Virus record (IMG/VR): IMGVR_UViG_3300022209_000007
Location: 1-34,964 of that record
Direction: 5' to 3' (one strand)
Length of the DNA stretch: 34,964 nt
From: a virus
The position numbers were made by a program, and so were the translations under genes. This document shows, in pieces, positions 6,264 to 20,968 of the stretch (positions are counted from its first letter, which is position 1; the number at the start of each line of letters is the position of its first letter). Below the pieces are notes generated by a model. That model was not told the DNA's origin, ran no database searches, and worked only from the letters and a program-made list of their open reading frames with translations.

Positions 6264-7829
6264 ATGCCTATATCCGAATGGTGCCCACATTGCGGGGCAA
6301 ATGGAACACTTGTGCCGGACGGATCGCGATTTGATCACAGAACAGGCGAACGCAACAAAAAATTCAGATGCACAGATTGCGAAAGGACGACGCAGAATCC
6401 GCTAGATTACGATCCAAAAACAAACGTTTTCGACACGCTACGAAGACCACTTCCTAGAACAAACCGGTATGTAGTTACCTGCGCACAAAACGCAACGAAC
6501 TACCATCGAAAATTCCTTACCAGCTTAGTCAAGTATTGTGATCATAACAATGCCGAACTTTTAATAATCCCCATCCGATATAAAAACCCTACGTCGACGT
6601 GGTCGAAGACAGCGAAGAAATACGACTGGTGGCACGACGATCTTGTTCCGTTTCTTTTTGTGGATCGAATAAATTTAACGCCGTCACTGGTATTACTTGG
6701 CGACATCCGAACCCAGTTAACCGCCGAAAAACCGCTGACTGGTTTCGAAACAATAACCGGTAACGCGTGGGGTATACTGGGTCATCCAAAATTACAGTTG
6801 ACCGCTATCGCAACGCCCGCGAATCGTTTACCGAAAATAATGACGACAACCGGGGCGGTTACGCTGTCCGATAATTATGTCGACAGCAAAGCCGGGAAAA
6901 AGGGCGCGTTTCATCATACTTATGGCGCGTGTATTGTTGAAATTGATGGCGATAAAACGCACCTTCGACAGATCAATGCGTTGAAGAACGGAACCTTTAT
7001 TGATCTTGATAAAAAGTACACCCCCGAAGGCGTGGAAGATGCTCCGCCCGCTGCCGGTCTGGTGATGGGCGACACGCACGTTCAATTCGTTGACCCCGGG
7101 GTTGTCGATGCCACGTTTACCAATAAAAATTCAATTGTCAAAACTCTTAAACCCCGGCAACTTATTTTTCATGATGTTTTAGATTTTTATAGTCAGAACT
7201 GGCACGACAGAAACAACCCATTTATTCAGTACGGAAAGCACGTCGCGCAAATGAACAACGTTCGAAACGAAGTAGATTTGACGTGTCGGTTCCTGAATGA
7301 AATGGTCCCAAAAGATACGAAGGCGATAATTGTTCCATCAAACCACAACGAAGGTTTAGATCGATGGATTCGGGAACATGACTGGAAATCCGATCCGTCC
7401 CACATGGAATTTTATCTTGAAACTGCGCTTGAAATGATTAGGTCAACGCAGATGGAAGATCGCGGCGTCACGACAGTTGACCCGTTCCGATACTGGGCAG
7501 AAAAAAAATTAATCTGCGACCATACTTTTTTGAACCGCGACGATCCTTATATGATCCAAGGAATCGAATGCGGCTTTCACGGTGATCAAGGTCCGAACGG
7601 GTCAAAAGGTTCTGCGGAGGCATTCAAGCGAATTTCTGCAAAAACGATCATCGGGCATTTCCACTGGCCCGCAATAAGCGAAGGCTGTTATCAAGTCGGC
7701 ACAAATAGCCGACTAAAATTGCAATATAATACCGGTCCGTCATCATGGATGCATGCCGACTGCGTTGTCTATGCAAACGGCAAGCGCAGCCTTATTATGA
7801 TACTGGACGGCGACTGGCGTCTACCGTAA
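6264..7829 (+). CDS. zinc-ribbon metallophosphoesterase-like protein
   Basis: The product is 521 residues. The N-terminus is a four-cysteine zinc ribbon (C7-x2-C10 ... C36-x2-C39). The C-terminal half has the ordered signatures of a calcineurin-like phosphoesterase: GDTH at 269-272, LIFHDVLDF near 298-306, NHNE at 360-363 and GHFH at 464-467. Together these could form a di-metal site as in Mre11/SbcD nucleases and phosphatases. The ribbon suggests DNA binding, so a DNA nuclease is the favoured role. T5 protein A1, an early DNA-degrading protein of similar size, came to mind as a possible relative, but I cannot verify it. A phosphatase or phosphodiesterase is the alternative. It follows the lysis genes and ends next to a convergent small gene. 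Confidence 0.65.
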   Translation: MPISEWCPHCGANGTLVPDGSRFDHRTGERNKKFRCTDCERTTQNPLDYDPKTNVFDTLRRPLPRTNRYVVTCAQNATNYHRKFLTSLVKYCDHNNAELLIIPIRYKNPTSTWSKTAKKYDWWHDDLVPFLFVDRINLTPSLVLLGDIRTQLTAEKPLTGFETITGNAWGILGHPKLQLTAIATPANRLPKIMTTTGAVTLSDNYVDSKAGKKGAFHHTYGACIVEIDGDKTHLRQINALKNGTFIDLDKKYTPEGVEDAPPAAGLVMGDTHVQFVDPGVVDATFTNKNSIVKTLKPRQLIFHDVLDFYSQNWHDRNNPFIQYGKHVAQMNNVRNEVDLTCRFLNEMVPKDTKAIIVPSNHNEGLDRWIREHDWKSDPSHMEFYLETALEMIRSTQMEDRGVTTVDPFRYWAEKKLICDHTFLNRDDPYMIQGIECGFHGDQGPNGSKGSAEAFKRISAKTIIGHFHWPAISEGCYQVGTNSRLKLQYNTGPSSWMHADCVVYANGKRSLIMILDGDWRLP

Positions 7830-12096: not shown

Positions 12097-12480
12097 ATGG
12101 CAAAAGTTTTTATACCATCGATACCGTATCGAATTGAACGTGATCCGGCAACAAATAAACCGAAGCGCGATCCTGTTACCGGGGAAGTCATCAAGCATGC
12201 CGCCGTAGACATTACCGTCGCGTCAATTTATGGTCGTATAGACGACGAACCAATTTTCAACGGGCACGGCGTACCCCCGGCAGCAAGTAAAAACAACGTT
12301 AATCAGGTCCGGCGTCGCCTTCGTGATTTTGATCCCGACGAAGATTCTATTATTGCGGTAGGTGATCCCGTTGCTGTTGCGCTTTGCTGCGCTGTTGCCG
12401 TTCGCGATTTTGGCGGGTTTTCAATCTTACGCTGGGACGGAAGAACCCGGCAATATGTGAAAATGGCTTTTTCGATATGA
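12097..12480 (+). CDS. hypothetical protein
   Basis: The product is 127 residues with a clear ribosome site (AAAGGAGTTTAAAAA). An N-terminal beta-rich part (KVFIPSIPYRIERDPATNKP, then DITVASIYGRIDDEPIF) is followed by DPDEDSIIAVGDPVAVALCC and a short C-terminal region (FSILRWDGRTRQYVKMAFSI). No family is recognised. It sits between the helicase and the tiny membrane peptides and is coupled to the first of these by an ATGA overlap. A role near replication is inferred from position only. Confidence 0.7.
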   Translation: MAKVFIPSIPYRIERDPATNKPKRDPVTGEVIKHAAVDITVASIYGRIDDEPIFNGHGVPPAASKNNVNQVRRRLRDFDPDEDSIIAVGDPVAVALCCAVAVRDFGGFSILRWDGRTRQYVKMAFSI

Positions 12481-12566
12481 ATACAGAAGTCATTGATTTA
12501 ATTTTAAACGCCATTATGATTATCGGCTTGCTGGTAGTCTGGCGGGAAATAAGACGAAATCGCTAA
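12477..12566 (+). CDS. 29-residue membrane micropeptide, copy 1
   Basis: ATG 12477 overlaps the preceding stop (ATGA). The product begins MNTEVIDLILNAIMIIGLLV and ends with a basic tail (REIRRNR). Residues about 6-21 form one membrane helix, so the peptide should lie with the basic end in the cytoplasm. A near-copy follows at 12583. Conservation of the frame, the helix and the basic end in both copies argues that they are real genes. Function is unknown; single-helix micropeptides often modulate larger membrane proteins. Confidence 0.55.
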   Translation: MNTEVIDLILNAIMIIGLLVVWREIRRNR

Positions 12567-12582
12567 CAGAAACGAAAACGCT

Positions 12583-12714
12583 GTGAACACAGAAGCCCTT
12601 GATTTGATTTTATTTGCCATCGGGCTTCCAGATGTTCGCTTCATGCTTGCGCAGAACGCCATTATGATTATCGGTTTACTGGTAGTCTGGTGGAGCATAA
12701 GACGAAACCCTTAA
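12583..12714 (+). CDS. 43-residue membrane micropeptide, copy 2
   Basis: The start is GTG 12583. The product begins MNTEALDLILFAIGLPDVRF and then repeats the core of copy 1 (NAIMIIGLLVVW) and its basic end (SIRRNP), with a 14-residue insertion in between. The DNA upstream of the start (ACAGAAACGAAAACGCT) is a copy of the leader before the next gene (ACAGAAAGGAAAACGCT), but with the AGG of the ribosome site changed to ACG. This copy is therefore probably translated weakly or by coupling. It is clearly a tandem duplicate. Confidence 0.5.
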   Translation: MNTEALDLILFAIGLPDVRFMLAQNAIMIIGLLVVWWSIRRNP

Positions 12715-12730
12715 CAGAAAGGAAAACGCT

Positions 12731-13285
12731 ATGAATGAAGAAGGTCTTGATTTATCTGAACTAGACGGAATTGTCGGTCCAACAGACGAACAACTGAAGA
12801 ACATCACGGAACTGGCTAAGCGTCAACTTGCTGCGGAAAGAACTGTCGCTGCCGCGTCTGGTTCACTTGACGAAGCGAAAAGGAACTTGCGCCGCATCAA
12901 TGAAAACTTGTTGCCGGAAGCGATGACAGAAATCGGGATGGAACAATTCAAGCTATCCGAAGGGATAGAAATCAAAATTAATGAAGCACTCCGGGCCAGT
13001 ATTAGTGAAGCGAATCGCCCCGCCGCTTACGATTGGCTGCGGGAACATGGTCACGACGCGATCATTAAAAAGACTGTGACAATAACATTTGACCCCGGGC
13101 AAGAACAGAATTATGATTCTGTCGTTAAATTTCTGGAAGACAACGATATTGAATTCGACGGTCGTTCGTCTATCCACGCAAGAACCCTAACCGCGTGGGT
13201 TGGTAATCAACTGCGCGAGGGTAATCCAGTACCGGACGAAATTTCGCACTATGAGCAGCGAATTTCTAAGGTTAAGGTGAATTAG
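12731..13285 (+). CDS. hypothetical coiled-coil phage protein next to SSB
   Basis: The product is 184 residues with ribosome site AGAAAGGAAAACGCT. Residues about 20-60 form a charged helix, probably a coiled coil (LAAERTVAAASGSLDEAKRN). Then comes NENLLPEAMTEIGMEQFKLS, a beta-rich segment, and YDWLREHGHDAIIKKTVTIT. I associate this pattern with an unnamed phage family often encoded beside SSB or recombination genes, but the assignment is from memory. The N-terminus MNEEGLDLS resembles the micropeptide starts MNTEVIDLI and MNTEALDLI, so the start region may have been part of the same duplication. It probably acts in DNA metabolism. Confidence 0.7.
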   Translation: MNEEGLDLSELDGIVGPTDEQLKNITELAKRQLAAERTVAAASGSLDEAKRNLRRINENLLPEAMTEIGMEQFKLSEGIEIKINEALRASISEANRPAAYDWLREHGHDAIIKKTVTITFDPGQEQNYDSVVKFLEDNDIEFDGRSSIHARTLTAWVGNQLREGNPVPDEISHYEQRISKVKVN

Positions 13286-13348
13286 GGTCGGGTCCCCTAA
13301 AGAAAAAAGCCCCCTTTAACCATCACCGACAAAAGAGGTAAATCCAAA

Positions 13349-14182
13349 ATGTCAAAAGCAATGAAAACTAATGGGAACGCGGCTCTCGCAATTCCGGACG
13401 AAGTCGATCTGCCAGAAGGCGCAGGTCTGGAAGAAGCTGACGCGTCAGCGTATGCAATCCCATTCCTGCGATTGATGCAGAAGGGATCGCCGCAAGCCGA
13501 TCCGGATTCGGACGCATACATCGACGGAACGAAGGCGGGAATGATCTATAACACTGTTTCCGGCGAAATCATCGATCCTGAAAAAGAAGACATATTCTTC
13601 ATTCCGGTTTACTGGCGGCGCGCGTTCGTCGAATGGAAGCCGCGCGATGCTGGCGGCGGTTCCGGCGGCGGTTTTGTCAAGGAATATTCTCCGGCGGAAG
13701 GGGAAGCCCTGATGCGCCAAACGACGCTCGACGACAAGAATCGCGACATCCTGCCGAACGGCAACCAGTTGAACGACACGCGCTATCATTACGTGATCGT
13801 GGTTCACGCTGGCGAAATGCTTCCGGCAGTGATTGCGATGGATCGCACGCAGATTAAGCGATCAAAACGCTGGTGTTCGTCTATGAATCAGGAAGTCGCC
13901 GCGAAAGGTTTGCGTGCTACGTTTCAGCTATTCTACAAGGTTGAATCTGAAGCACAGAGCAAGGACGGCAACACGTGGCGAATCTGGGACATCAAGGCCC
14001 CGCAGAATATCGCGGATCAGAATCAACTGAACGCAGCCATCGAGTTTTACAAAGCGATCAAATCCGGTGCCGTCAAAGAAGCGATTGATTCGCTTGATGA
14101 CGACGAAGCCACCGCCGGATCGGGGTCACGGGCTACCGGGGAGCAGCAAGCCCCGGAAGCTTCCGAACCAGCAACGTTCTAG
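13349..14182 (+). CDS. single-stranded DNA-binding protein-like
   Basis: The product is 277 residues with ribosome site AAAGAGGTAAATCCAAA. The body is beta-rich with an aromatic and basic core (IFFIPVYWRRAFVEWKPRDA, then IAMDRTQIKRSKRW). The C-terminus is a flexible acidic tail (DSLDDDEA ... EASEPATF) ending in Phe, the hallmark of SSBs that recruit partners through the tail (T7 gp2.5 and bacterial SSB). Position just before a primase supports this. No classical SSB signature is visible, so the call rests on tail, composition and context. Its codons are richer in GCG/CGC than its neighbours', consistent with high expression. A terminator follows. Confidence 0.6.
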   Translation: MSKAMKTNGNAALAIPDEVDLPEGAGLEEADASAYAIPFLRLMQKGSPQADPDSDAYIDGTKAGMIYNTVSGEIIDPEKEDIFFIPVYWRRAFVEWKPRDAGGGSGGGFVKEYSPAEGEALMRQTTLDDKNRDILPNGNQLNDTRYHYVIVVHAGEMLPAVIAMDRTQIKRSKRWCSSMNQEVAAKGLRATFQLFYKVESEAQSKDGNTWRIWDIKAPQNIADQNQLNAAIEFYKAIKSGAVKEAIDSLDDDEATAGSGSRATGEQQAPEASEPATF

Positions 14183-14193
14183 TTGTATTGAAT

Positions 14194-14222
14194 GGGGCGG
14201 CAATTACGCCGCCCCGTTTTTT
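14194..14222 (+). terminator. intrinsic terminator after the SSB-like gene
   Basis: Perfect 8-bp stem GGGGCGGC / GCCGCCCC (14194-14201 and 14208-14215), loop AATTAC, then G and six T. It ends 2 bp before the preferred GTG start of the primase gene, so it should cap SSB transcription and limit readthrough into the primase. Confidence 0.85.
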
Positions 14223-14224
14223 AC

Positions 14225-15802
14225 GTGACAGCAAAAAAATTATCTGAACTGTTCAAAGGACTGGACAGGGCACACGGAACCTACCAGATCGACGATACTG
14301 ACGTATCCGAAAAGGTTTCGGGTCAAGCCCTGACACTCGCGCAACCGCCTACCCTTGCTATGTGGCAGCAACATCTAGACGGGACGCGGAGTCTGGGAAT
14401 CGTGCCAATCATGGACGACGGAAAATGCAACTGGGCTTGCATTGACATCGATACTTATAAGGGCGATGTATGCGCGCAGATTGTGCTATTCCTGAAAAAG
14501 TACAATATACCTTTTATAGTATGCAGGTCGAAATCGGGCGGCGCGCACGTGTTTGTATTTTTCAAGGAACCTGTCCCAGCGCCGAAGATAATTCGCAAGC
14601 TGAACGCGATCGCGAAATCAATGGGGCACGAAGGCGCGGAAATATTTCCGAAACAGGTCAAGATCGAACCCGATCAATACGGCAACTGGTTGAACATGCC
14701 GTATTTTGACGAAGAAGTAACCCTTCGATATGCATTCGATAAAGATGGCGAGCAATTGACTCTTGACGAATTCCTGAAGGCAGCGGAAAAAATAAAGTTG
14801 ACCGAAAAAGAATTCGACGCGATACAACCGCCGAAACTTGAATTTCCGTTCGCGGACGGTCCGCCGTGTTTAGCACAATTTGCCATGCAGGGCGGCGTCA
14901 GCGAGGGCGGACGGAATAACGCATTGATGCAAATGGCGGCGTATGCAAAATTCAAATATGGTGAAGAAGGCTGGAAGGAAGAAACGGAAAAATTAAATGA
15001 TCTTTATATCAAGCCACCACTGACCGGGCGCGAACTGGCCGACACGGTCTTCAAGTCGAACGACCGGCGCGACTACGGCTATATGTGCACGCATCCCCCG
15101 ATGGTCAACGTCTGCAACAAGCGCGTCTGTATGCAGCGACAATTCGGTGTCGGCGGCGCGGCGGAAGATCAGTTCGAAGCGGAAATTAATCTTGAAGATT
15201 TGAAAAAGCTGATCTATGAATTGCCGAACGGCAAAATGATCGATGACAATCCGAAATGGGAACTTACAATTCAGAATCGGGTTATTCGTTTCCCCGATAC
15301 TTCGTTTTTACAGGAACAGAAAAAATTTGCTACGCTCTGTATAAACAAAGTCAATACATATCCGCCGACGCTTCCCGCTGGTCGATGGCGCGCGCTGATC
15401 CACGATAGATTAAAAAACGTGGAAGTCGTTCGAATACCATTTGAACAATCGGACCACGCGCAAACATTAGAACATCTGAAAGACTTCCTGCGCAATATGG
15501 CACACGCGAAAAATGTGTCGCAACTGATGGACGGGCTTGCGTTGAACGACAAAGGGGTTTATCGTTTTAGGTTGGAATCACTGGTTGATTTTATTCGCGA
15601 AAAAACTCGCCGGGCTGTTGATGCCGACGCTATCGGAGAACATCTGGAAGCTTTCGAAATGCGTCGACAACGGTCAACCGTCCGAATCGGGGCGGGGCAT
15701 GTCGCTATTGTTTATTGGGAAACGGATAACGAAGTTCTTCAAATGATAGAGTCGGAAATAGAAACCCCAGAACAACCAGATGAACCCGGGGTTAATTTCT
15801 GA
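14225..15802 (+). CDS. archaeo-eukaryotic-type primase (TOTE-like AEP)
   Basis: With GTG 14225 the product is 525 residues. An in-frame ATG at 14192 lies at the foot of the terminator hairpin and is less likely. Motifs of an AEP primase are visible: CIDIDTY (Asp74 and Asp76, metal-binding), RSKSGGAHVFVFF (about 101-113, the SxH motif), GAEIFPKQ and GNWLNMPYF. This order matches the TOTE-type AEP family. Near residue 300 a cysteine cluster (YMCTHPPMVNVCNKRVC) suggests a zinc or Fe-S site, as in PriCT-like domains. No helicase domain is fused. It should make primers for the phage polymerase. Its stop overlaps the next start (TGATG). No ribosome site precedes the GTG. Confidence 0.82.
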   Translation: MTAKKLSELFKGLDRAHGTYQIDDTDVSEKVSGQALTLAQPPTLAMWQQHLDGTRSLGIVPIMDDGKCNWACIDIDTYKGDVCAQIVLFLKKYNIPFIVCRSKSGGAHVFVFFKEPVPAPKIIRKLNAIAKSMGHEGAEIFPKQVKIEPDQYGNWLNMPYFDEEVTLRYAFDKDGEQLTLDEFLKAAEKIKLTEKEFDAIQPPKLEFPFADGPPCLAQFAMQGGVSEGGRNNALMQMAAYAKFKYGEEGWKEETEKLNDLYIKPPLTGRELADTVFKSNDRRDYGYMCTHPPMVNVCNKRVCMQRQFGVGGAAEDQFEAEINLEDLKKLIYELPNGKMIDDNPKWELTIQNRVIRFPDTSFLQEQKKFATLCINKVNTYPPTLPAGRWRALIHDRLKNVEVVRIPFEQSDHAQTLEHLKDFLRNMAHAKNVSQLMDGLALNDKGVYRFRLESLVDFIREKTRRAVDADAIGEHLEAFEMRRQRSTVRIGAGHVAIVYWETDNEVLQMIESEIETPEQPDEPGVNF

Positions 15803-17346
15803 TGGAAAAGAAGCTTGTGCTAGGACCGCCGGGAACGGGAAAAACTACGTTTCTGGTAAATACTTTTCGCAAGCTTTTAGAACGCGGTGTTGACCCCGAA
15901 CGAATAGCCTATGTCAGCTTTACTCGAAAAGCCGCACAAGAAGCACGCGATCGCTGCGTTCAAAGTCTTTCGCTTCCCGCTTCCCGCTTCCCGCATGTTA
16001 AGACACTTCACAGCATCGCTTTTCGCGAAAATGGTCTGGCGACATCCGATGTTATGAACAACGAAAATTACCGAGAAGTTAGCGACTATCTAGGTATTAA
16101 TATAATGCCGGTGAACGAATCACGCGGGCTTGGCGAAGACACGATGATCGGTTTCCACTTAGCACTAGCACGGAATCTTCGTCGAGATTACGAACAACAT
16201 TTTCGATCTGTTGCGGGGTCGACTACATTAAAACGTTTTAATTTTGGTAGTTTGGACCGGGGCGGTTCACTCGCTGAATTCCTTCGCGCCGCGCGCGTCC
16301 TTGAGCAATACAAGCGCAAAAATAATTTATGGGATTTCCACGATATGCTAGAAGCTGGCACGCACTGCGATCCGTTGCCGGTTGATTACGCCATCATAGA
16401 CGAAGCGCAAGACCTTTCGCCCCTGCAATGGCAATTTGCCGCGCAGATGTTCAAGAATGTTAAAACGTGTTGGATTGCCGGGGACGACGATCAGGCTGTC
16501 TATTCTTGGTCAGGTGCTGACTTGCATACTTTTCGAAATATGCAAGCGGAACGAACCGTTCTGGATCAATCTTACCGACTGCCGGAATCGATCTGGAAGT
16601 TCGCGATCAAGATTGCTGAAATGATTGATGACCGTTACGAAAAAGAATGGAAGCCGCGATCGGATTCCGGCGAGTTACATTTTGTGACCGGATTGGAAGA
16701 ATGCCCACTGAACAATTCTGAATCTTGGTACTTGCTGACGCGCACCAGATCGCAACAATACGAACTAACGCGATGGCTTCGTTTTCACGGGTTTCCATAT
16801 ACTCAGAACGGGAAAGATTCTATAAAAAAAGAACATATTCGATTGGCTAACACGTGGACAAAATTGCAGCGCGGCGAGTATGTCCCCGTTTCTTCGGCGC
16901 TGGCAGTATACGACTTTATGCGGGACGAACAACTTCAGCCGGATGCGCGGAAAAAATTGTCAATGCTTCCTTTAGATGATCGGATTAAATTACCAGAATT
17001 AGTAAGTTCTTGCGGTCTTATTAACGCGGACGGAATCTGGCATGATGTTTTATTGATAGATAAAACAGATTCGAATTATTACCGAGCAGTCAAAGATAAT
17101 TTAGGAATGGATGCTTTGATCTCAGAACCGCGAATCGCAGTTCATACGATGCACGGGGTAAAGGGCGGCGAAGCGGACAACGTTTATTTTTCAAACAGCA
17201 TGGGGCAGAAACCATACAGTTATTATAAAACCGGGCATACGCGGGATGATGAAGCCCGAATATTTTATGTTGCCGCGACCCGTGCCCGGAAACGGTTATT
17301 TGTAAAAATGTCGCCTCGCTGTCCTTTCCCTGTTCCGAAGAATTAA
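15802..17346 (+). CDS. UvrD/PcrA-like SF1 helicase
   Basis: The product is 514 residues. Motif I is GPPGTGKTT (residues 7-15), Ia YVSFTRKAAQEARDR, II YAIIDEAQDLSPLQ, III AGDDDQAVYSWSGAD, V VHTMHGVKGGEADNVYFSN and VI EARIFYVAATRARKRLFV. It is shorter than bacterial UvrD (about 720 residues), so accessory subdomains are reduced. It is a 3'-5' translocase by family. Together with the SNF2-type protein it gives the phage two helicases, but no DnaB-type replicative helicase is visible here. Coupled to the primase by TGATG, so the two are made together. Confidence 0.88.
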   Translation: MEKKLVLGPPGTGKTTFLVNTFRKLLERGVDPERIAYVSFTRKAAQEARDRCVQSLSLPASRFPHVKTLHSIAFRENGLATSDVMNNENYREVSDYLGINIMPVNESRGLGEDTMIGFHLALARNLRRDYEQHFRSVAGSTTLKRFNFGSLDRGGSLAEFLRAARVLEQYKRKNNLWDFHDMLEAGTHCDPLPVDYAIIDEAQDLSPLQWQFAAQMFKNVKTCWIAGDDDQAVYSWSGADLHTFRNMQAERTVLDQSYRLPESIWKFAIKIAEMIDDRYEKEWKPRSDSGELHFVTGLEECPLNNSESWYLLTRTRSQQYELTRWLRFHGFPYTQNGKDSIKKEHIRLANTWTKLQRGEYVPVSSALAVYDFMRDEQLQPDARKKLSMLPLDDRIKLPELVSSCGLINADGIWHDVLLIDKTDSNYYRAVKDNLGMDALISEPRIAVHTMHGVKGGEADNVYFSNSMGQKPYSYYKTGHTRDDEARIFYVAATRARKRLFVKMSPRCPFPVPKN

Positions 17347-17352
17347 AAAACC

Positions 17353-17380
17353 TTGACAATATTTAGTAAAGTGCTATTAT
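17353..17380 (+). promoter_or_regulatory. promoter of the guide-RNA (Tas) operon, inside an inverted repeat
   Basis: TTGACA (17353-17358), 16 bp, TGC-TATTAT (-10 at 17375-17380), then TTAAAAC. An exact 10-bp inverted repeat, AAAACCTTGA (17347-17356) and TCAAGGTTTT (17393-17402), brackets the core promoter and overlaps the -35. This could be an operator pair. The promoter serves the genes at 17429, 17728 and 18161 and then the repeat array. Confidence 0.78.
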
Positions 17381-17428
17381 TTAAAACAAGCCTCAAGGTT
17401 TTAATTTATATAGAAAGGAGAATTAAGG

Positions 17429-17740
17429 ATGTTAGATCAAAAAATTACTTGTGGAAAACACTCGTTTAAACTCGATGAGTTAGAAACGGCTGTAAAATTC
17501 GCGTTCGTTACTGAACTTGCATTGAAGATTGAAAACGTGATCGCTGCAAGCGGAACGTCTGACGGTTTGTGCTTCGGCGATCTTCAGGATCGCGGTCTTC
17601 TGAAAAAAAGATATATCCCCGGGAATGGACCGGATTACGATCCTTCCGGTATTGAATGGACAGTTGTCGGCGATGTGGAATTCACAACTGAGTGCGGCAA
17701 CACTTTCAAAAAGGGGGACGTGATCGAATGGGAAAAATAG
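17429..17740 (+). CDS. small hypothetical protein, first gene of the Tas operon
   Basis: The product is 103 residues with strong ribosome site AAAGGAGAATTAAGG. The N-terminal half is helical (LDELETAVKFAFVTELALKI); the C-terminal half is beta-rich (IEWTVVGDVEFTTECGNTFK) and could be a small barrel. No family is recognised. Its coding end overlaps the next gene by 13 bp. It shares the promoter of the Nop/IS110-like gene and array, so a link to the guide-RNA system is possible but unproven. Confidence 0.65.
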   Translation: MLDQKITCGKHSFKLDELETAVKFAFVTELALKIENVIAASGTSDGLCFGDLQDRGLLKKRYIPGNGPDYDPSGIEWTVVGDVEFTTECGNTFKKGDVIEWEK

Positions 17741-18120
17741 CCGATAGATTTTCAAAATCGAAAAGAAAAAAAGCAAAACGGACGGGGCATTGTTTTGTTA
17801 CCGCCGCAACAATGCAATCTAAACTTTTAACAGACTGGGAATTAGTTCATGGCATACCGCTGGGCAAGGGCGGGGAAGCGCAGGGTTTGCGCTATCCCCA
17901 CGCGTGGCTAGAATCCCCGGATGGGTTACAGGTATTCGATCCGAGCCTTTATGAAAAAGGAATCGAGCCGTTTTTTCCGTTGCGTAGTTATTACGAAATC
18001 GGAAATATAGAATGGACGGTTCGTTACCCGGTAGAGTCCGCCACGCGACTAATGCACGTGAGCGGGAATTTTGGTCCGTGGCATCAGAAGTTAATCGACC
18101 TTGACCGGGAGATCGGCTGA
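17728..18120 (+). CDS. possible papain-like/transglutaminase-fold protein
   Basis: The product is 130 residues from ATG 17728; an in-frame start further upstream would lie deep in the preceding gene. A very basic N-terminus (RFSKSKRKKAKR) precedes a candidate Cys-His-Asp triad in the order of papain-like and transglutaminase folds: Cys22 in GHCFVTAATM, His58 in YPHAWLE and Asp71 in VFDPS. The small size and spacing resemble uncharacterised phage proteins with this pattern. If active it could be a peptidase or amidase, but this is inferred from three short motifs. It is the second gene of the Tas operon. Confidence 0.55.
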   Translation: MGKIADRFSKSKRKKAKRTGHCFVTAATMQSKLLTDWELVHGIPLGKGGEAQGLRYPHAWLESPDGLQVFDPSLYEKGIEPFFPLRSYYEIGNIEWTVRYPVESATRLMHVSGNFGPWHQKLIDLDREIG

Positions 18121-18160
18121 CAGGTCGCGGACTTTTAAAAATCTGAAAGGAGAAATTAAA

Positions 18161-19021
18161 ATGAGTGAATTAAAAACTATGGTACGTGGTGTGTATGATC
18201 TTCAAAAATTACGCATTCAAATGGGAAACCGAATCGTCGGTAATTTTAAAGCAAAACTAGGGCAGGAACCTTCTCAACCCGAAGCCGAAATAGGGTCAGA
18301 AGGTGCTATGATTTTAAAATCGATGCGCGCTTCCTATGATAAGTTGATGGACGGGGTAAAAACTTTTCCGCGTCAAGCATCTTTTTCAGGTGACGAAATT
18401 ATCAGCAGTTACACGGAATTTTGTTTAATGGCGCAGTATGTTGAAATCGAAGAATCTGAAATTGCTGGTTTTCGACGGTTGAAAACAACCTTGCGGGAAT
18501 ATCCTATTTACAATAATTTTCTTGTAAATGTGAAGGGCGTCGGTCCGGCGATGGCGGGGGTTATTTTATCTGAATTCGATATAACCCGAGCAACTTACCC
18601 GTCGTCAATGTGGAAATATGCGGGTTTAGACGTTGCGTCGGATGGAAGGGGTCGGTCAAGACGGGCTGAACATTTAGTTGAAGTTGACTACAATGACAAG
18701 GACGGCAACCCGGCAAAACGTCGCGGCATTACGTTTAATCCGTGGTTGAAAACAAAATTGATCGGCGTTCTGGGGTCGTCTTTTCTGCGTGCTGGTGAAA
18801 ATCCTTATCGTGCTATTTACGATGACTACAAAAATCGTTTGGAAAATCATCCGGCTCATCAAGAAAAATCGAAAGGTCATCGGCATAATATGGCAATCCG
18901 ATACATGGTTAAACGGTTTTTAGTTGATCTTTATACAGAATGGCGCGCGCTGGAAGGCTTGCCGGTTGCAGATGAATACAGCATCGCGAAACTAGGCATT
19001 GATCATCGGAAAGCAGGTTGA
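18161..19021 (+). CDS. TIGR-associated (Tas) protein, nuclease-less, Nop/IS110-like
   Basis: The product is 286 residues from ATG 18161, with an ideal ribosome site (AAAGGAGAAATTAAA). The N-terminal 110 residues are predicted long helices (VYDLQKLRIQMGNRIVGNF), as in Nop-domain coiled coils. Residues 122-139 (VNVKGVGPAMAGVILSEF) form a helix-hairpin-helix followed by MWKYAGLDVASDGRGRSRR, the layout of the C-terminal domain of IS110 transposases (Tnp_20), which is structurally akin to Nop. A basic C-terminal helix follows (GHRHNMAIRYMVKRFLVDLY). The IS110 RuvC-like DEDD half is absent, and no HNH is seen. The repeat array starts 10 bp after the stop. It should bind array-derived RNAs and be guided to DNA; binding without cleavage is inferred. 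A lone transposase remnant is the alternative. Confidence 0.78.
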   Translation: MSELKTMVRGVYDLQKLRIQMGNRIVGNFKAKLGQEPSQPEAEIGSEGAMILKSMRASYDKLMDGVKTFPRQASFSGDEIISSYTEFCLMAQYVEIEESEIAGFRRLKTTLREYPIYNNFLVNVKGVGPAMAGVILSEFDITRATYPSSMWKYAGLDVASDGRGRSRRAEHLVEVDYNDKDGNPAKRRGITFNPWLKTKLIGVLGSSFLRAGENPYRAIYDDYKNRLENHPAHQEKSKGHRHNMAIRYMVKRFLVDLYTEWRALEGLPVADEYSIAKLGIDHRKAG

Positions 19022-19031
19022 TCGCGTGCAG

Positions 19032-20076
19032 AGTGAATCATGAAAGCCAAGAAACCCGTTTCAAGCTAGTGAACCGGAAGAAAAAAGAAACCCATTGGAT
19101 CGAAGTGAACCATGTAAGTAAAGGAAACCGCAGATAAATAGTGAATCAAAAAGCCGACGGAACCCGATGCCGCGTAGTGAATCAAGTGGGTAAAGAAACC
19201 CAACCCGGATAAGTGAACCAAATAGTGAAAGAAACCCGCTGATTTATAGTGAATCGATGACTGGAATAAACTCAGGCTGGCCGAGTGAATCAATATAAGG
19301 AAGAAACCCGGGAAAACGGAGTGAACCACCGCAGGAAAAGGAAACCGCTGATAATTAGTGAACCAAAAATTGAAAGAAACCCATACAGGCATAGTGAACC
19401 ATTGAATAGAAGAAACCCAGATTGACCAAGTGAATCAACGGCGAAAAGAAACCCGAACGAGACTAGTGAACCATTATATGTGAGAAACCCACCGGAAAAC
19501 AGTGAATCAACGGCGAAAAGAAACCCGAGCTAGGCTAGTTAATCAAAAACAAAAAGAAACCCAGACAGGCCGAGTGAACCAAGTGGGTAAAGAAACCCAA
19601 CCCGGATAAGTGAACCAAGCGGGGAAAGAAACCCATTGCAAGCTAGTGAACCAAGTTGTTGAAGAAACCCGCTTCAATTTAGTGAACCATTACATGAAAG
19701 AAACCCAAACTGACCAAGTGAACCAAACAGGGAAAGAAACCCAAACTGCCCAAGTGAATCACAAACAGAAAGAAACCCAGTCAGTCCGAGTGAACCATAA
19801 AACTAAAGGAACCCAGTGAAAACGAGTGAATCACAAGCAGAAAGAAACCCAGATAGGACGAGTGAACCATAGAACTAAAGGAACCCAGTGAAAACGAGTG
19901 AACCAACCGCGAAAAGAAACCCGTCTAAAGCTAGTGAATCGGAAACCGTGAGAAACCCATACTTACAAAGTGAACCAAGCGGGGAAAGAAACCCATACTA
20001 ACCAAGTGAACCATAAAGCGAAAGGAAACCAAACTTGCCTAGTGAACCAAGCCTACAAAGAAACCCAGTTAATCGG
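19032..20076 (+). repeat. TIGR array: 29 units of 36 bp with paired short spacers
   Basis: There are 29 head-to-tail units. 28 are exactly 36 bp; unit 9 (19320-19356) is 37. Each is AGTGAAYC, 10 bases (spacer A), RGAAACCC, 10 bases (spacer B). Box 1 deviates once (AGTTAATC at 19537) and box 2 in a few units, the worst being unit 7 (ATAAACTC). Spacer A nearly always starts and ends with A, and spacer B always starts with a purine, so the true variable cores are about 8-9 nt. A broken box (AGTGTAAT) closes the array at 20077. Period, two alternating boxes and two spacers per unit match TIGR arrays, which are processed to 36-nt tigRNAs. It should be transcribed with the gene at 18161. CRISPR does not fit: boxes are too short and spacers alternate. 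Confidence 0.88.
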
Positions 20077-20101
20077 AGTGTAATATTTTTTAAAAAAACG
20101 C

Positions 20102-20129
20102 TTGACTTCTGGTAAGGCTATGCTATTAT
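20102..20129 (+). promoter_or_regulatory. sigma70-like promoter with extended -10
   Basis: TTGACT (20102-20107), 16 bp, TGC-TATTAT (-10 at 20124-20129), then TTAAAAC. A T6A7 tract just upstream (20086-20098) may serve as an UP element and lies directly after the repeat array. It drives the DUF932 gene and is nearly the same as the promoter at 8147. Confidence 0.78.
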
Positions 20130-20160
20130 TTAAAACATGAACAGGGCGTACCCCGGTTCA

Positions 20161-20184
20161 GCGGAATTTTCCGCAACGTTTTTT
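20161..20184 (+). terminator. possible attenuator in the DUF932 leader
   Basis: GCGGA-ATTT-TCCGC (20161-20174) followed by AACG and six T (20179-20184), between the promoter and the ribosome site. It has the form of a weak intrinsic terminator in the 5' leader, so it could attenuate transcription. The stem is only 5 bp and no alternative structure is evident. Confidence 0.35.
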
Positions 20185-20209
20185 AACAACTGGAAAGGAG
20201 AATTAAATT

Positions 20210-20968
20210 ATGTCAAACCTCAATCTTATGCTTCACTGTGGCGCGTCGCATGTTGATCGTTCGGAACTTGGAAAGGTAAACTTGCCGGTTGCGACTCGAA
20301 GCTTCGTCCCGGTCAATCACGATTACTTCGTCGATCTGGTTCAGGACAGGCTTGAAGATCGCGGTCTTCGGGTTCAATCCGAAGCCCACGGTCTGACAAA
20401 AGACGGGGCCAATTACTTCGGAATGTTCGAAGTTGTGGGTCGTGAATCGCGAGGCGATTACAGCACTGTGATCGGACTGCGGAACAGCCATGTAAAGGCT
20501 TTCGCTGCGATGATCGCAGTCGGTTCCGGGGTGTTCGTTTGCGACAACCTCGCTTTTTCTGGCGAAGTCGTTGTCGGTCACAAGCACACCAGAAACGTGC
20601 TTGAATATCTTCCCCTGCGAATTGCTGCCGCAATGGATCAGGTTATTCGCTTAGACGATCATCAAGAAATTCGTTATGATCGGTATAAGGAAACAGAATT
20701 CGGCGACAAGGATGCAGAATTCCATATCGTCGAACTGTTTCGCAAAGGCGCACTGAATACGCGGTCTTTGCCGAAAGTTGTTGAACAGTGGGACAATCCT
20801 GATCATCAGGAATTCGAAAACTCGAATGTCTGGAAGTTGTTCAACGCTTGCACTGAAGCATACAAAGGAACATCACTGGAATGGATTCAGCGGATGTCGG
20901 GTGAATTACATCGTCACCTTGATACGGTCTGCGAAGTTCCGGAACTTGTTCTTCCTGAAGCGGCGTAA
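20210..20968 (+). CDS. DUF932 family phage/plasmid protein
   Basis: The product is 252 residues with ribosome site AAAGGAGAATTAAATT. The core GLRNSHVKAFAAMIAVGSGV, then FVCDNLAFSGEVVVGHKHT, is the DUF932 signature, common in phages and plasmids but of unknown function. A C-terminal helical region (WKLFNACTEAYKGTS) precedes the end. It is a one-gene transcription unit with its own promoter, a possible attenuator, and a strong hairpin behind it, which suggests high, independently controlled expression. Whether it works with the adjacent Tas system is unknown. Confidence 0.8.
   Translation: MSNLNLMLHCGASHVDRSELGKVNLPVATRSFVPVNHDYFVDLVQDRLEDRGLRVQSEAHGLTKDGANYFGMFEVVGRESRGDYSTVIGLRNSHVKAFAAMIAVGSGVFVCDNLAFSGEVVVGHKHTRNVLEYLPLRIAAAMDQVIRLDDHQEIRYDRYKETEFGDKDAEFHIVELFRKGALNTRSLPKVVEQWDNPDHQEFENSNVWKLFNACTEAYKGTSLEWIQRMSGELHRHLDTVCEVPELVLPEAA

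What the first reader, a model, noticed from the sequence alone, without database searches (positions are those of the whole stretch)
19032..20076. Array evolves by unit copying, and spacers form families
Units 5 and 16 are the same except for T/C in box 1. Units 12 and 14, and 17 and 27, share spacer A but not B. Units 21-22 and 23-24 are a duplicated 72-bp block; 22 and 24 differ at one base, while 21 and 23 differ at several. B spacers cluster (ending AAGCT in 1, 17, 25; ending GACCA in 11 and 19; starting GCTGAT in 6 and 9). This suggests growth by recombination between boxes with reshuffling of A and B, not one-sided acquisition as in CRISPR.
Basis: seen in the sequence. Interest (0 to 1): 0.72.

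Follow-up and report, generated by a model that had tools for sequence, protein, structure and literature searches.

The report
TIGR guide array evolving by copying
A virus of bacteria carries 29 paired guide sequences of the recently described TIGR-Tas kind, and comparing its array with about 60 related arrays shows that the guides are copied, lost and exchanged mostly as whole 36-base units throughout the array, not added at one end as in CRISPR; this bears directly on a question that the discoverers of TIGR-Tas left open.

Summary
The 29 x 36-bp array (19032-20076) follows a 286-aa gene whose predicted fold is the Nop domain of TasR/TasH without the nuclease (VIA Z 19.4). It is therefore a TIGR array of a TIGR-TasA system (known kind, Science 2025). 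The listed copies exceed column-shuffle nulls: 3 whole-unit copies, 0.03 expected. They show unit and block copies and exact half-unit sharing (15 pairs, 0.16 expected, 44 family-independent arrays). One array has a loop-to-loop 36-bp tandem duplication (a1b1|a2b1|a2b2) that makes a chimeric guide. Shared units are mostly collinear (121 v 15). Unshared units lie at the 5' end (67), interior (144) and 3' end (48), so no leader-end polarity. But A and B are not freely reshuffled: when A is identical in two arrays its B matches in 91%, while the neighbour across the edge repeat matches in 36% (67 to 0 per distinct spacer). The 36-bp unit is the main inherited module. In one family tas is 97.5-99% identical between phages with ~70% identical backbones, so the locus also moves between phages. 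The source of new spacers and the targets remain unknown.

The parts
18161..19021 (+). tasA: 286-aa Nop-domain (Tas) protein without a nuclease domain; effector of the array
   Evidence: phmmer: TasR 9mty E 1.7e-12, TasH 3.4e-6; family profile v TasR 2.5e-22, TasH 8.6e-14; AlphaFold2 model pLDDT 85; VIA Z 19.4 to TasR residues 111-317 and 19.1 to TasH
19032..20076 (+). [quoted passage not shown] unit 9 is 37 bp), starting 10 bp after the tas stop codon
20077..20085 (+). degenerate last edge repeat (AGTGTAATA), end of the array
19176..19211 (+). unit 5, whole-unit copy of unit 16
19573..19608 (+). unit 16, whole-unit copy of unit 5 (T/C in the edge repeat)
19429..19464 (+). unit 12: same A as unit 14, B 3 of 9 different
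19501..19536 (+). unit 14
19609..19644 (+). unit 17: same A as unit 27, B unrelated; B 1 base from that of unit 1
19969..20004 (+). unit 27
19753..19824 (+). units 21-22, first copy of the 72-bp duplication
19825..19896 (+). units 23-24, second copy of the 72-bp duplication
20102..20129 (+). promoter-like site (TTGACT-16-TATTAT) between array and next gene
   Evidence: consensus match only
17692..18120 (+). upstream neighbour gene, 142 aa, no family found; kept in L030, which lacks tas and array
20210..20968 (+). downstream neighbour gene, weak DUF932 match (below Pfam cut-off); kept in L030

Best explanation
The locus is a phage-borne TIGR-TasA system. SHOWN HERE: a TIGR-type dual-spacer array next to a nuclease-less Nop-domain protein; copies of units and blocks within the array; in related phages, gain, loss and exchange of units along the whole array; A and B of a unit inherited mostly together; occasional half-unit chimeras; exchange of the tas gene between phages with very different backbones. 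INFERRED: the array is transcribed from the tas side and cut into about 29 tigRNAs of 36 nt, each pairing with both strands of one DNA site (A on one strand, B on the other), as shown for TasR and TasH. Its repertoire changes through short-homology recombination or replication slippage between the 9-bp repeats and through recombination with arrays of co-infecting relatives, not through CRISPR-like end addition. Edge-to-edge events move whole guides. Loop-to-loop events make new A+B pairs, which seem to be kept less often because both halves must fit one target.
For: Identity: PMC12045711. Copying in the window. In 44 family-independent arrays: whole-unit pairs 12 v 0.12 expected, exact A-only 6 v 0.09, exact B-only 9 v 0.07. 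Loop-to-loop tandem duplication in L078 (units TTAAATATA/TATCAGATT, AGTAAAATC/TATCAGATT, AGTAAAATC/TTAGAAGAT) and a repeated block with loop-repeat boundaries in L049. Linkage; in the largest family (8 arrays) loop and edge repeats are equally conserved (99.5% v 98.0% identity; mean identical tract 10.4 v 9.9 nt), yet 81% v 31% of partners are kept, so repeat homology does not explain the bias there. Unshared units 67 at 5' end, 144 interior, 48 at 3' end; shared units 121 in order, 15 out of order. Unit families rise from 14 in one array to 66 in eight, too many for loss from one ancestral array of the sizes seen (at most 19 parsed units). tas 97.5-98% identical where both flanks are about 67-72% identical. 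Identical arrays recovered from independent samples (L004/L005, L009/L023, L015/L017).
Against: No near relative of the window itself with an array was found (L018 ends inside tas; L030 lacks the locus), so for this array the process is read from copies inside it and from cousins. Transcription, processing and DNA targeting were not tested. No target was found: A+rc(B) matches in 0.86 Mb of held loci do not exceed re-paired controls, nor in the window itself. In six of ten families edge repeats are clearly better conserved than loop repeats, or the test is uninformative, so part of the linkage bias could be mechanical.
Confidence: 0.82

Rival explanations
1. CRISPR-like acquisition: new spacer pairs are added at the leader (tas-proximal) end from foreign DNA, and interior differences come only from later losses.
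For: The last unit at the 3' end is shared in several pairs, like a CRISPR trailer, and some pairs differ most at the 5' end (L003/L004: 7 unshared at the 5' end, 0 at the 3' end). New unit families keep appearing.
Against: In complete pairs 67 unshared units lie at the 5' end, 144 inside, 48 at the 3' end; if they were spread evenly over the gaps between shared units I reckon about 54 at the 5' end, so there is no strong excess. L092/L091 share the first two units and differ inside; L040/L035 differ mainly inside. The number of unit families is too large for loss alone. Half-unit sharing and block copies are not predicted. No cas1/cas2-like gene among ten genes around the array.
Confidence: 0.08
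2. Unit-wise insertion by a dedicated mechanism: the mature 36-nt tigRNA, or a DNA copy of it, is the moving piece and is put back at edge repeats anywhere in the array.
For: Units move mainly as edge-to-edge 36-bp modules even where loop repeats offer equal homology. Interior gains.
Against: No reverse transcriptase or integrase was seen near tas in this window, though I did not search all genes for one. Exact A-only and B-only sharing and loop-to-loop duplication need another route. Ordinary recombination plus selection on A+B pairs explains the same bias.
Confidence: 0.07
3. Chance and composition: short A-rich spacers look alike by accident.
For: Short shared ends of B spacers beyond near-identical copies are at chance level.
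Against: Column-shuffle nulls reject it for whole units, for exact halves in independent arrays and for B families in the window; sharing between phages keeps order.
Confidence: 0.01
4. Assembly artefact of a repetitive region.
For: All arrays are metagenomic; several contigs end in or beside an array (L008, L018, L068, L074).
Against: The same arrays were assembled from independent samples (L004/L005, L009/L023, L015/L017, L048/L050); copies carry their own point differences; a 36-bp unit with 9-bp repeats is spanned by ordinary reads (general knowledge).
Confidence: 0.02

Closest known systems
TIGR-Tas systems, TasA subtype (Faure et al. 2025, PMC12045711)
   Same: Two alternating short repeats, 9-nt spacers, 36-nt unit, array beside a Nop-domain gene, phage location; the protein is the Nop part of TasR/TasH.
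   Different: 29 units, where most arrays have 5 to 15; repeat sequences belong to this clade (AGTGAAYCA/AGAAACCCA). The paper calls emergence, maintenance and expansion of arrays an enigma; the evolution data here are additional.
CRISPR arrays
   Same: Guides stored between repeats; unit duplications and losses by recombination between repeats also occur there (PMC8047081).
   Different: There new units are predominantly added at the leader end by Cas1-Cas2; here no end polarity and no such gene near the array. Each TIGR unit holds two spacers, which gives a second, half-unit way to make new guides.
Clustered box C/D snoRNA genes
   Same: Guides of Nop-domain proteins in clusters that change by birth and death of copies (PMC4063771, title and abstract only; otherwise general knowledge).
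   Different: snoRNA genes are separate, longer RNAs with K-turns; TIGR units share their edge repeats head to tail.
IS110 transposase with bridge RNA
   Same: Same RNA-binding fold (VIA Z 13.0-13.3 to IS621/ISCro4); explains why Pfam and PHROGs call Tas a transposase.
   Different: No DEDD catalytic domain: the model aligns to residues 128-314 of IS621 only; has a guide array instead of one bridge RNA.

Membership tests
TIGR-Tas | Array of two alternating 8-12-nt repeats with spacers of about 9 nt | tested here: met
   29 units, 9+9+9+9 bp
TIGR-Tas | Adjacent gene for a Nop-domain protein of the Tas family | tested here: met
   Sequence and fold match TasR and TasH best; IS621 and Nop5/Prp31 rank lower
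TIGR-TasA | Nop domain alone, no RuvC or HNH | tested here: met
   286 aa; whole model aligns to TasR 111-317 and TasH 68-299, beyond their nucleases; no nuclease family in Pfam
TIGR-Tas | Box C/D-like motifs (CCA and UG) in edge and loop repeats | tested here: inconclusive
   Both repeats end in (C/T)CA or CCR; the edge repeat holds UG, the loop repeat starts with AG; the paper says the motifs can diverge but covary
TIGR-Tas | Array ends in a truncated edge repeat and a rho-independent terminator | tested here: inconclusive
   Degenerate edge repeat at 20077; the nearest terminator-like site on the + strand lies at 20161, after a promoter-like site
TIGR-Tas | Processing into 36-nt tigRNAs bound by Tas | not testable with these tools
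   needs RNA sequencing
TIGR-Tas | The two spacers act in tandem on the two strands of one target | tested here: inconclusive
   A-B pairs are inherited together, as expected if they act together; no target found
CRISPR-Cas | Polarised addition of units at the leader end | tested here: not met
   Unshared units 67 at 5' end, 144 interior, 48 at 3' end in related TIGR arrays
CRISPR-Cas | cas genes (effector, cas1/cas2) | tested here: not met
   No cas1, cas2 or effector among ten genes around the array (PADLOC; only a PrimPol-like primase); the remaining genes were not scanned with PADLOC
IS110 transposase | N-terminal DEDD/RuvC-like catalytic domain | tested here: not met
   The model covers only the C-terminal, RNA-binding part of IS621

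The most novel reading that the evidence does not exclude
TIGR arrays are guide repertoires that evolve without an adaptation step. The 36-bp two-spacer unit is the unit of inheritance and selection, whole units and the tas gene are traded between co-infecting phages, and new guides arise combinatorially when recombination at a loop repeat joins an A to a new B. This would be a way of renewing nucleic-acid guides different from CRISPR, and it would mean that TasA, whose function is unknown, also uses both spacers of a unit on one target.
Probability: 0.5. Interest if true: 0.8.

Novelty: new member of a known kind. Interest (0 to 1): 0.62.

Why it matters
[quoted passage not shown] Sixty-one arrays compared here answer part of the first question: arrays change by copying, loss and exchange of whole units at all positions, faster than the surrounding genes diverge (two phages with flanks about 98-99% identical share 7 of 13 units). 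They also give indirect evidence on the second: A and B are kept together where repeat homology alone would let them separate, so the pair seems to be what selection sees. If new guides arise by recombination, the targets are likely to be something the phages meet again and again, such as relatives or rival mobile elements (inference), rather than recorded past invaders. The data name families (L003-L009, L088/L096/L070, L040/L035) in which this can be tested.

Tried and rejected
Targets: for 929 units I searched A+rc(B) and rc(B)+A with up to 2 mismatches in 0.86 Mb of held loci; counts equal those of re-paired spacers. One exact match (L036 unit 5, just downstream of the array in L006/L020) is AT-rich and probably chance. 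The window has no self-targets beyond re-paired controls, gaps 0-2 bp included. I did not scan the large collections with single 18-mers: at those sizes about one or more chance hits per 18-mer is expected, so a hit would tell nothing. The order A then rc(B) is my inference from the cut geometry in the paper and from IS110. Seed constraint: substitutions in homologous spacers are not rarer at positions 4-5 (23 of 118, 26 expected). Breakpoints inside spacers: shared 5-base ends beyond near-identical copies are at chance. Excess divergence of unit 21/23 B in the window duplication: 4 of 6 differences fall in one spacer, suggestive only. Substitution in homologous units: spacers 118 in 2466 sites, edge 33 and loop 31 in 1233 each; pairs were chosen by spacer likeness, so the spacer rate is a lower bound. 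A deletion-only model was rejected on the accumulation of unit families. Annotated phage genomes gave only three distant relatives, so no isolate-based comparison was possible. The alignment of L007 stops at a GA run in one spacer, which inflates its 3'-end count (25 of the 48). The window-type repeat search found arrays with like repeats but none sharing units with the window.

Full report
WHAT IS THERE. The array runs from 19032 to 20076 on the + strand, 29 units of edge repeat (AGTGAAYCR), spacer A (9 nt), loop repeat (AGAAACCCR) and spacer B (9 nt); only unit 9 is 37 bp. It starts 10 bp after the stop codon of a 286-aa gene (18161-19021).

WHAT KIND OF SYSTEM. The gene product matches TasR (9mty, E 1.7e-12) and TasH (3.4e-6) by sequence (with a family profile 2.5e-22 and 8.6e-14). 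The AlphaFold2 model (mean pLDDT 85.3) aligns best with TasR (VIA Z 19.4, residues 111-317) and TasH (Z 19.1), then with the RNA-binding part of IS621/ISCro4 (Z 13) and, more weakly, Nop5 and Prp31 (Z about 7). The nuclease part of TasR/TasH is missing, so this is TasA. Array and gene together are a TIGR-TasA system in a tailed phage (tail, endolysin, polymerase and thymidylate synthase genes). Pfam and PHROGs call such proteins transposases. The kind is known from Faure et al. 2025 (PMC12045711), who show processing to 36-nt RNAs for TasA, TasR and TasH, and DNA targeting by both spacers for TasR and TasH. They state that how arrays emerge, are kept and expand is an enigma. I found no later open paper on this.

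IS THE COPYING MORE THAN CHANCE? I shuffled each spacer column among units, which keeps positional composition. In the window, whole-unit pairs (both spacers within 2 differences) number 3 against 0.03 expected (0 of 2000 shuffles), B pairs within 2 differences 11 against 1.85 (0 of 2000), B-alike/A-unlike pairs 7 against 1.8 (6 of 2000), A-alike/B-unlike pairs 12 against 5.6 (31 of 2000). The evidence for A/B reassortment in the window alone is modest: one exact A-only pair (17/27), reached by 90 of 2000 shuffles; 12 and 14 look like a diverged copy (B differs at 3 of 9).

RELATED ARRAYS. Scans with the Tas protein and with two repeat patterns gave 61 non-redundant arrays with 771 regular units. 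In 44 arrays, one per family, whole-unit pairs number 12 against 0.12 expected, exact A-only pairs 6 against 0.09, exact B-only pairs 9 against 0.07. Whole-unit copies tend to lie close together (13 of 20 within four units, 8.0 expected, p 0.017). Two cases show the mechanism most directly. In L078 three successive units read a1b1, a2b1, a2b2, which is what a 36-bp tandem duplication from loop repeat to loop repeat gives; the middle unit is a new A-B pair. In L049 the block B-A-B-A recurs 108 bp further on, with boundaries at loop repeats.

GAIN AND LOSS ARE NOT AT ONE END. Aligning arrays of related phages unit by unit gives 121 shared units in the same order and 15 shared pairs out of order. 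In pairs with both ends present, unshared units number 67 at the 5' (tas-proximal) end, 144 in the interior and 48 at the 3' end; 25 of the 48 come from L007, where parsing stopped early. By my arithmetic, an even spread over the gaps between shared units would put about 54 at the 5' end. The last unit is often kept, as at a CRISPR trailer. Unit families in the eight-array family rise from about 14 in one array to about 66 in eight, so interior differences are not only losses. CRISPR arrays also lose and duplicate interior units, but new units there come predominantly at the leader end (PMC8047081).

A AND B TRAVEL TOGETHER. Between arrays, an identical A has a B within 2 differences in 93 of 102 cases, but the B before it, across the edge repeat, in 24 of 66; an identical B has its A in 90 of 111 and the next A in 27 of 78. 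Per distinct shared spacer, the loop partner is kept more often in 67 cases, the edge partner in none, with 45 ties; nine of ten families point this way and one ties. In several families loop repeats are less conserved than edge repeats, which could make recombination at them rarer. In the largest family they are not (99.5% v 98.0% identity, mean identical tract 10.4 v 9.9 nt), and the bias remains (81% v 31%). I infer that selection keeps A-B pairs, as expected if both halves address one target.

EXCHANGE BETWEEN PHAGES. In the same family the tas gene is 97.5-99% identical between phages whose flanking DNA is about 67-72% identical on the downstream side and, where held, upstream (L003/L004 group v L009 v L006/L020). 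One boundary lies near the tas start, the other in the array. L003 and L004, with flanks 98-99% identical, share 7 of 13 units; L048 and L050, with flanks 99.6% identical, share all 24. For the window's own lineage, L030 has the same neighbour genes on both sides but two other genes in place of tas and array, so the locus is accessory there.

LIMITS. No array from a near relative of the window was found: L018 is 99.95% identical to 12161-18573 but ends inside tas. All arrays are metagenomic, though identical ones were recovered from independent samples. Pairs of arrays within a family are not independent, hence the per-spacer and per-family counts. Families were grouped by shared whole units, but the ungrouped counts agree. 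Targets were not found, and the source of truly new spacers is unknown. Spacer substitutions show no seed constraint.

VERDICT. The comparison makes part of a stated open question testable.

Noticed in passing
L003-L009, L020 (tas gene and flanks): The tas gene is 97.5-99% identical between phages whose backbones are about 70% identical: a recently exchanged module with one boundary near the tas start and one in the array.
   Followed up: partly
window 17692-20968 v L030:4643-6762: L030 has homologous neighbour genes on both sides but no tas and no array; two other ORFs (114 and 154 aa, the latter nuclease-like by eye) sit there.
   Followed up: partly
window 18161-19021: Pfam Transposase_20 (below cut-off) and PHROG phrog_4285 label Tas proteins as transposases; many annotated phage 'transposases' of this kind may be Tas proteins.
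   Followed up: no
L007:1222-1330 and L029:615-725: One spacer A has grown into a (GA)n run of about 50 nt that differs by 2 nt between two samples of nearly the same phage.
   Followed up: no
L012:2584-2835: Two A spacers alternate (a, b, a, b, a') while all B spacers differ: A copied or B replaced in a regular pattern.
   Followed up: no
L103:5150-5900 and 7222-7617: Arrays on both sides of tas on a contig binned as Acidipila, with a perfect 36-bp tandem duplication at the contig end.
   Followed up: no
L036 array unit 5; L006 and L020 just downstream of their arrays: The only exact 18-nt A+rc(B) match in all held loci; AT-rich, probably chance.
   Followed up: partly
L021, L022, L024-L027: Contigs up to 315 kb carry longer Tas proteins (about 390 aa) with insertions in the Nop domain and arrays upstream of tas.
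   Followed up: no
L011:8250-8842: A period-18/54 repeat near tas with a layout different from a TIGR array.
   Followed up: no
window 20102-20129: Promoter-like site between the array and the next gene, suggesting that this gene is transcribed on its own.
   Followed up: no
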